This document shows, piece by piece, positions 47,477-49,349 of a stretch of 64,000 bases of DNA. The notes beneath the pieces are model-generated. The model saw only the letters and a list, made by a program, of their open reading frames with translations, searched no databases and was not told where the DNA came from. This stretch comes from Conexibacter arvalis (GTDB taxonomy: Bacteria; Actinomycetota; Thermoleophilia; Solirubrobacterales; Solirubrobacteraceae). The position numbers and the translations under genes are program-made. Positions within the stretch are counted from its first letter, which is position 1. Every line of letters begins with the position of its first letter. The stretch lies in assembly GCF_014199525.1 (NCBI RefSeq), contig NZ_JACHNU010000002.1, positions 416,147-480,146 on the forward strand. Direction: 5' to 3'.

Positions 47477-47587
47477 GGTGCCGGACGGGCCGCCGCGCCG
47501 GCGCCCCCTCCCACCGCATCGCCCGGCCCGAACCGCCCGATCCCGGCGCGCCGACGGTTCAAACTGGACTCTTGGAACGCGCCTGTT

Positions 47588-47593
47588 TATGGT
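47588..47593 (+). promoter_or_regulatory. -10-like box of a probable leaderless promoter
   Basis: TATGGT, 6 nt before the ATG at 47600, with no Shine-Dalgarno. A TTCAAACTGGAC element upstream (47558-47569) has a near-copy, TTCAAACGGACC, ahead of the paralog at 48508. Confidence 0.5.
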
Positions 47594-47599
47594 AGCTCG

Positions 47600-48352
47600 A
47601 TGCTCCCCAACAAACGTTCAGGCCGCGTCCTCGCAGCCGCCGCGCTCGCGGCCGCGCTGCTCGCCGCCGCCCCTGCCGCCCAGGCGCAGAACAGAACCTC
47701 GCTCAGAGGCGCGATCAACCCCAACAAGGGCAAGATCGGCACGCCGATGGACCTCAAGATCGCCTTCACGATCGACCCGCCGGCGGGCACGGTGCCCGGC
47801 ACGCTCAGCGAGCTCACCCTGCAGTTCCCGCCGAACGCGAAGGTCAACGCGAACCTCTTCCCGGTCTGCAGCGCCGCGACGATCAACGCGGCCAAGAGCT
47901 TCCGCAACTGCCCCAAGGGCTCCCAGATCGGCGGAGGCAGAGGACACGCGGACGTTACCGCCGTGCCGGTCTACAACGCGGACTTCGACGTGACGCTGTT
48001 CAACGGCAGCAGATCGGGCAAGAAGATCACCGTCCACGTCTACGCGATACGGCCGGTGCCGATCTACGAGGCCTTCGAGGCGACGCTGACGAGAACGCGC
48101 GGCAGATACGGCTACCGCTTCGTCGCGAAGCTGCCCTACTCGCTCCAGGAGATCTCGCCCGGCTGGTTCGCGCAGGTGCGCGACTTCAACAGCACGATCA
48201 GAGCGAGACGCAAGATCAGAGGCAAGACGCGCGGCTTCATCGAGTCCTCGACGCTCTGCCCGAGAAGCCTCTCGGTCCCGCTCGCCGGCTCGTTCAAGTT
48301 CCTCGACGGCACGTCGAGCTCGTCGCAGACGACGATCAGATGCCGCCGCTGA
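47600..48352 (+). CDS. Secreted basic protein of unknown family, paralog A
   Basis: 250 aa. Signal peptide (LAAAALAAALLAAAPAAQA, cleavage after AQA). The mature part is basic, beta-rich and free of known domains. It shares with paralog B (48508-49251) GxINPNKGKxGTP, FPPNAKVNANLFPVC (paralog: LPPNAVQNAKFFPVC), INAAKSFRNCPK, SQIG, TLFNGSRSGKKITVHV, RPVPIYEAF, RTRGRYGYRF, SLQEISPGWFAQVR and RGKTRG. Two conserved cysteines near FPVC and FRNCPK and two near the end suggest disulfides. About half of its arginines (11 of 22 by eye) are AGA. The function is unknown; surface location is inferred. Confidence 0.8.
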   Translation: MLPNKRSGRVLAAAALAAALLAAAPAAQAQNRTSLRGAINPNKGKIGTPMDLKIAFTIDPPAGTVPGTLSELTLQFPPNAKVNANLFPVCSAATINAAKSFRNCPKGSQIGGGRGHADVTAVPVYNADFDVTLFNGSRSGKKITVHVYAIRPVPIYEAFEATLTRTRGRYGYRFVAKLPYSLQEISPGWFAQVRDFNSTIRARRKIRGKTRGFIESSTLCPRSLSVPLAGSFKFLDGTSSSSQTTIRCRR

Positions 48353-48372
48353 GCATCACCCGCTGACCGGCA

Positions 48373-48396
48373 GCGCGGGCGCCCCAGCGCCCGCGC
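48373..48396 (+). terminator. Terminator-like hairpin
   Basis: GCGCGGGCGC/GCGCCCGCGC, 10 bp with a 4-nt loop (CCCA), 20 nt after the stop of paralog A. It separates the two paralogs into distinct transcription units. Confidence 0.65.
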
Positions 48397-48495
48397 AACG
48401 CCTCAGGATCACCCAAGTTTCGGTCTTCAAACGGACCGTGTCGCGAAGCCGACCGACGGTCTGGTTGCCCGTGGACGAGGTGGTACGCACTCGTT

Positions 48496-48501
48496 TACCA
48501 T
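48496..48501 (+). promoter_or_regulatory. -10-like box of a probable leaderless promoter
   Basis: TACCAT, 6 nt before the ATG at 48508, no Shine-Dalgarno. Same arrangement as for paralog A. Confidence 0.5.
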
Positions 48502-48507
48502 CGGCCG

Positions 48508-49251
48508 ATGTCCCCACAACGAGCAGGTCGCACGCTCGCGGCGGCAGCGGCTACGGCCCTGCTGCTCGCCACCGCCCCCACGGCGCTGGCGGCTGAATCG
48601 AGCATCTCCGGCAAGATCAACCCGAACAAGGGTAAGCCGGGCACTCCCCTCAGACTGACGGTGAACTTCACCACCGAAGGTGACGAGGGTGTCGAGTCGA
48701 GCACGCTGAGACAGGTGATCGTCCAGCTGCCGCCCAACGCCGTCCAGAACGCGAAGTTCTTCCCCGTCTGCAGAGCGGTCACGATCAACGCCGCGAAGAG
48801 CTTCCGCAACTGCCCGAAGAACTCCCAGATCGGCAGGGGTTCGCTGCGGGCGGACGTCCCGATGACCGACGTGTACAACGTCCCGGGCACCGTCACCTTC
48901 TTCAACGGCAGCAGAAAGGGCAACAGAATCACGATCCACGTGAACGCCCTGCGCCCCGTGCCGATCTACGAGGCGTTCGACGCCACCCTGCTGAGAACCC
49001 GCGGCAGATACGGCTACAAGCTGATCGCGAACATCCCGGACTCGCTGCAGGAGATCTCGCCGGGCTGGTTCGCGCAGGTGAGAAGATTCACCAGCACCTT
49101 CAACGCGCGGATCAAGGTGAGAGGCAAGACGCGCGGCTACATAGAGGCGAAGAGATGCCCGAAGGCGCGCAGAGTCCCGATCGCCGGCTCCTTCGCCTTC
49201 CGCCAGGGCTCCTCCACCTCGGCGCTGGGCTGGATCACCTGCCGGCCGTAG
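48508..49251 (+). CDS. Secreted basic protein of unknown family, paralog B
   Basis: 247 aa, tandem paralog of 47600-48352 in the same orientation. Signal peptide (LAAAAATALLLATAPTALA), then the shared motifs listed there. It differs most in the first 40 mature residues and the tail. About half of its arginines (12 of 24 by eye) are AGA. It has its own leaderless-type promoter and a terminator after it, so the copies can be regulated apart. Function unknown. Confidence 0.8.
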   Translation: MSPQRAGRTLAAAAATALLLATAPTALAAESSISGKINPNKGKPGTPLRLTVNFTTEGDEGVESSTLRQVIVQLPPNAVQNAKFFPVCRAVTINAAKSFRNCPKNSQIGRGSLRADVPMTDVYNVPGTVTFFNGSRKGNRITIHVNALRPVPIYEAFDATLLRTRGRYGYKLIANIPDSLQEISPGWFAQVRRFTSTFNARIKVRGKTRGYIEAKRCPKARRVPIAGSFAFRQGSSTSALGWITCRP

Positions 49252-49303
49252 CACCGTGAACGGGTCGCGCCGCCGCGGCGGCGCGGTCCTCCGAAGCGAC
49301 ACC

Positions 49304-49330
49304 GACGCGCCCGCGGAGCGCGGGCGCGTC
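49304..49330. terminator. Bidirectional terminator hairpin
   Basis: Perfect 11-bp stem GACGCGCCCGC/GCGGGCGCGTC, 5-nt loop, followed by GTCGTTT on the plus strand, between paralog B and the convergent rhomboid gene. Confidence 0.75.
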
Positions 49331-49349
49331 GTCGTTTCGGGCGCGCCGC

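What the first reader, a model, noticed from the sequence alone, without database searches (positions are those of the whole stretch)
47600..49251. Tandem secreted paralogs of an unrecognised family
Two 250-residue exported basic proteins share long motifs (INPNKGK, FRNCPK, RPVPIYEAF, SLQEISPGWFAQVR) and four conserved cysteines, but no known domain. Each has its own leaderless-type promoter and terminator, so they look independently regulated and selected for. They could be surface, wall or extracellular components specific to this lineage.
Basis: seen in the sequence. Interest (0 to 1): 0.75.

Follow-up and report, generated by a model that had tools for sequence, protein, structure and literature searches.

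The report
Conexibacter four-cysteine secreted module proteins
Two neighbouring genes in a Conexibacter soil bacterium encode small, strongly positively charged, exported proteins that are single-unit members of an unnamed four-cysteine domain family, found so far only in one bacterial order, where the same domain is also strung together 4 to about 31 times in giant proteins; they are probably structural or adhesive parts of the cell exterior, which nobody has tested.

Summary
Window 47600-48352 and 48508-49251 encode 250- and 247-aa exported basic paralogs (61% identical, pI 10.6 and 10.9, four cysteines) with no Pfam, NCBIfam, PHROGs or PDB-sequence relative. They belong to a family seen only in the host's order (Solirubrobacterales; genus Conexibacter), with up to about 10 copies per genome, often in tandem. 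Over 65 members the four cysteines are essentially invariant and no catalytic-type residue is conserved. AlphaFold gives both a confident single beta-sandwich (pLDDT 84 and 86), closest at background-level scores to Ig-like domains of adhesins, pilins and BslA/YweA. The same four-cysteine module forms four-domain (~930 aa) proteins in this genome and a 7,223-aa frame with about 31 modules in a relative. Conexibacter copies carry a dedicated leaderless promoter (TGGAC-N3/4-YGGWAC-N6-GTTTAYNNT, six bases before ATG): 8 exact hits in 7 genomes, all upstream of this family. Conserved G+C-rich hairpins follow the genes. The likeliest role is a cationic, disulfide-locked structural or adhesive protein on the anionic cell exterior; function is inferred, not shown.

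The parts
47565..47593 (+). Promoter 1: TGGACTCTTGGAACGCGCCTGTTTATGGT, -10 TATGGT ends 6 bases before ATG (leaderless type)
   Evidence: exact match to the genus motif, 2 hits in the own genome; conserved in orthologs
47600..48352 (+). Paralog 1, 250 aa exported basic four-cysteine protein (signal peptide about 47600-47686)
   Evidence: AlphaFold model pLDDT 86.2
48373..48396 (+). G+C-rich hairpin after paralog 1 (likely terminator without U tract)
   Evidence: fold z -4.4; hairpins at the same place in orthologs
48472..48501 (+). Promoter 2: TGGACGAGGTGGTACGCACTCGTTTACCAT, -10 TACCAT ends 6 bases before ATG (leaderless type)
48508..49251 (+). Paralog 2, 247 aa exported basic four-cysteine protein (signal peptide about 48508-48591)
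   Evidence: AlphaFold model pLDDT 83.8
49303..49331 (+). G+C-rich hairpin after paralog 2, between it and the convergent rhomboid-type gene
   Evidence: fold z -6.4

Best explanation
The two genes encode secreted, single-module members of an unnamed four-cysteine, Ig-like beta-sandwich family of the order Solirubrobacterales. Shown: the module, its invariant cysteines, its tandem use in giant proteins, export signals, very basic charge, and a dedicated conserved leaderless-type promoter in Conexibacter. Inferred: after Sec export the two cysteine pairs (C88-C102, C217-C245) form local disulfides, and the rigid cationic module is held by charge on anionic wall polymers, polysaccharide or extracellular DNA, where it acts as a structural or adhesive envelope/matrix component; multi-module relatives would be longer versions of the same scaffold. 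It has no wall anchor, no transmembrane tail and no conserved catalytic residue.
For: Family of 65 collected members: cysteines 100/98/100/100%, no charged or catalytic-type residue above about 51%; 64 of 65 have pI > 8, median 9.9. Confident beta-sandwich models of both paralogs, nearest solved folds mostly surface adhesins, pilins, cohesins and BslA/YweA. Same module in giants: hhalign P 96%, E 4e-9; Cys spacing 10-15/94-125/28-34 in four-module proteins; 31 modules in a 7,223-aa frame against at most 6 in 1000 random placements. Genus-wide promoter pattern 8/8 upstream of members, 0 control hits. C. woesei cells aggregate and form an undulate structure of self-aggregated flagella with entangled cells (PMC3035278): a phenotype to which such a protein could contribute; no direct link is known.
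Against: No localisation, proteomic or binding data. The fold scores (Z 7-8.6) are at the level that unrelated models reach, so they show the fold class at most. Disulfide pairing was not measured on the models. No sortase, pilus or wall-polymer gene neighbours the pair. A soluble extracellular role (inhibitor, scavenger, toxin-like) would look similar.
Confidence: 0.5

Rival explanations
1. Soluble extracellular binding protein: the module binds a small ligand, a polymer or a protein (protease inhibitor, scavenger) in the medium rather than building the envelope.
For: Exported, no anchor, small; conserved loop residues N81, N133-G134, G109-x-G111.
Against: Conserved residues look structural (Gly, Pro, Cys, Asn), not a polar pocket; reuse of the module 4-31 times in single proteins fits a scaffold better.
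Confidence: 0.25
2. BslA/YweA-like surface-active protein that coats cells or colonies.
For: YweA is the top structural match of paralog 1 (Z 8.6, 2.9 A over 117 residues) and BslA ranks third.
Against: Z is at background; no Pfam hit to any model; the proteins are hydrophilic (GRAVY -0.28 and -0.35) and very basic. A hydrophobic cap could not be inspected.
Confidence: 0.1
3. Secreted toxin, bacteriocin or other antagonistic factor.
For: Cationic, secreted, multi-copy, tandem.
Against: No immunity gene beside the pair, no toxin-domain hit above cutoff, no catalytic residues, conserved at one place between housekeeping genes across the genus.
Confidence: 0.08

Closest known systems
Unnamed four-module giants of Solirubrobacterales (this report; no Pfam or NCBIfam name)
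   Same: same four-cysteine module, export signal, same order of bacteria
   Different: four to about 31 modules, the dedicated promoter motif is not in front of them; several are encoded directly after an exported PD40-repeat protein
MSCRAMM / CNA-type collagen-binding domains and AgI/II C-terminal domains
   Same: secreted beta-sandwich surface domains; Z about 7
   Different: those carry LPXTG anchors and often isopeptide bonds (established knowledge); here cysteine pairs and no anchor
BslA / YweA hydrophobins (Bacillus)
   Same: small secreted Ig-like protein, best match of paralog 1
   Different: no sequence similarity found; about 100 more residues; basic and hydrophilic
YcnI copper-binding domain
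   Same: small Ig-like exported domain, Z about 8
   Different: no conserved histidine; cysteines taken by two putative disulfides

Membership tests
Four-cysteine module family (defined here) | C-x(9-20)-C ... about 110 ... C-x(26-38)-C with CPxxSxxGxG after the second cysteine | tested here: met
   cysteines in 65/65, 64/65, 65/65, 65/65 members; spacing medians 14, 112.5, 28
Four-cysteine module family (defined here) | profile relationship to the multi-module giants | tested here: met
   hhalign probability 96%, E 4.2e-9; family HMM recovers up to four modules per giant
MSCRAMM / LPXTG surface adhesins | C-terminal LPXTG sorting signal and membrane anchor | tested here: not met
   proteins end ...TTIRCRR and ...WITCRP
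MSCRAMM / LPXTG surface adhesins | Ig-like N2-type fold | tested here: inconclusive
   Z 6-7.6 to ACE, CNA, Cnm, background level
BslA / YweA hydrophobins | sequence match to a known family model | tested here: not met
   no Pfam hit above cutoff in 2 paralogs or 19 members
BslA / YweA hydrophobins | exposed hydrophobic cap | not testable with these tools
YcnI copper-binding | N-terminal histidine copper ligand in the mature protein | tested here: not met
   predicted mature N-termini QNRTS and AESS; no His column conserved above 50% in 65 members
Secreted enzyme | conserved catalytic residues | tested here: not met
   no conserved Ser/His/Asp/Glu/Lys set among 65 members

The most novel reading that the evidence does not exclude
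The order Solirubrobacterales has its own extracellular scaffold system: a disulfide-locked Ig-like module used as a free cationic subunit and, in the same genomes, as 4- to 31-module giants, with the single-module subunits in Conexibacter driven by a dedicated leaderless promoter and its own regulator.
Probability: 0.3. Interest if true: 0.7.

Novelty: new variant of a known kind. Interest (0 to 1): 0.5.

Why it matters
Solirubrobacterales are common soil bacteria with almost no cell biology. A multi-copy exported domain family with no name in Pfam or NCBIfam, used from one to about 31 modules per protein, is a concrete entry to what their surface is made of. The promoter motif, exclusive to this family in seven genomes, gives a direct handle on an unknown regulator.

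Tried and rejected
Pfam, NCBIfam, PHROGs and PDB-sequence searches gave only chance hits. Foldseek against PDB gave nothing at E <= 1e-3 for either model; one BFVD hit (Bacillus phage G Gp680, E 1e-4) covers only half the target and was not pursued. Phage and plasmid origin: no tblastn match. Regulon search: with one mismatch only two further sites, about level with the control, one near a collagen-like exported gene; treated as chance. A sigma-70 consensus scan finds no promoter; the conserved motif was found only by comparing orthologs. No paper on this family was found.

Full report
What is there. Window 47600-48352 (+) and 48508-49251 (+) encode 250- and 247-aa proteins that are 61% identical. 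Both have a Sec-type signal sequence ending in an AxA motif, four cysteines, mature pI 10.6 and 10.9 and net charges near +20 and +22, and no wall anchor. Pfam, NCBIfam, PHROGs and PDB sequences give no relative.

Where it occurs. The nearest named records are Conexibacter, and a same-genus genome of 6,359,369 bases has exactly the published length of C. woesei. Of 61 genomes (own plus relatives) 27 hold a copy at E <= 1e-5 with one query sequence. With a 19-member profile, 58 of 249 genomes of the class hit, every listed hit being in the same family or order, and nothing hit in the sampled rest of the phylum. This is a sample of one phylum; other phyla were not searched genome-wide. Genomes hold up to about ten copies, sometimes five or six within about 6 kb. 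The own genome has six stand-alone members.

What it is. In 65 collected members the four cysteines are present in 65, 64, 65 and 65; the next most conserved positions are Gly, Pro, Asn and Phe, and nothing looks catalytic. 64 of 65 are basic. AlphaFold, with six sequences, gives pLDDT 83.8 / pTM 0.84 for paralog 2 and 86.2 / 0.85 for paralog 1, almost all beta. The nearest solved structures are Ig-like domains: YcnI Z 8.1, YweA 8.6, BslA 7.8, collagen-binding ACE/CNA, AgI/II and pilin domains about 7. Such Z values are common for unrelated models, so only the fold class is supported.

Giants. The profile also hits frames of 919-1329 aa in the own genome. Their modules carry the same cysteine pattern, up to four modules per protein, and profile-profile comparison agrees (E 4e-9). 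In a relative of another family of the order a single 7,223-aa frame has 31 modules by cysteine spacing, against at most 6 in 1000 random placements. Giants too are confined to the order in the samples and have no Pfam name.

Regulation. Upstream regions of Conexibacter members line up from about -45 to the start codon, with motif TGGAC-N3/4-YGGWAC-N6-GTTTAYNNT, whose TAYNNT ends six to seven bases before ATG in the window pair and most others. In the own genome the exact pattern occurs twice, at this pair. In seven genomes of the genus it occurs eight times, each time directly before a family member, with no hit for the reversed control. The two tandem copies of C. woesei differ from it by one or a few bases. 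Most family members of other genera have Shine-Dalgarno-like AGGAGG instead. Copies at the first and second tandem position keep distinct variants of the motif across species (GGAAC...CCTGTTTAT and GGTAC...CTCGTTTAC), while the coding parts of the pair are closest within the own genome (support 99/98), most so in the middle; an old duplication plus gene conversion would explain this, but was not tested further. Stable hairpins follow the tandem genes in four species although their sequences differ, which supports termination without a U tract.

How it probably works. Inference: after export the two close cysteine pairs lock a rigid sandwich; the high positive charge holds it to anionic wall polymer, polysaccharide or DNA; it serves as a structural or adhesive element. 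C. woesei cells aggregate in old cultures with entangled flagella (PMC3035278), a phenotype to test. Nothing here measures binding or location, and no neighbouring gene points to a pathway: the pair sits between a BtuF-like gene and a rhomboid-type gene, conserved across Conexibacter.

Verdict. A real, conserved, previously unnamed family; the fold class is ordinary; the order-wide module expansion and the family-exclusive leaderless-type promoter are the interesting parts.

Noticed in passing
window 47600-49251 and about 200 kb of the same genome (window, L076, L077, L107-L111): The rare arginine codon AGA is enriched in genes for exported proteins: 199 of 1232 Arg codons against 110 of 2224 in cytosolic genes (Mann-Whitney p 1.4e-7, simple hydrophobicity classification); the pair is the extreme with 23 of 46. 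Not seen in family members of other genera.
   Followed up: partly
L102-L103 (G042:C7, about 254000-276000): A single open frame of 7,223 aa made of about 31 four-cysteine modules, largely alternating between two module types.
   Followed up: partly
L107:7037-12405, L110:4880-9996, L109:6612-8942: Four-module giants are encoded directly downstream of a 780-830-aa exported protein with PD40 propeller repeats; in two loci the giant starts where the propeller gene stops.
   Followed up: partly
L104:5004-10642, L105:2281-12772: In two other genera a single-module member lies beside or near a giant and near MCE/MlaD genes and, in one, an SLT-M23 wall hydrolase.
   Followed up: no
L077:5875-11428, L080, L081: Another single-module member is near a metallophosphoesterase and an IspH-like gene in the own genome, as are the five- to six-copy clusters of another genus.
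   Followed up: no
L110:4041-4637 and L089 about 1577-2173: Small exported proteins with collagen-like GPA repeats; one gene lies 50-60 bases after a near match to the promoter motif.
   Followed up: no
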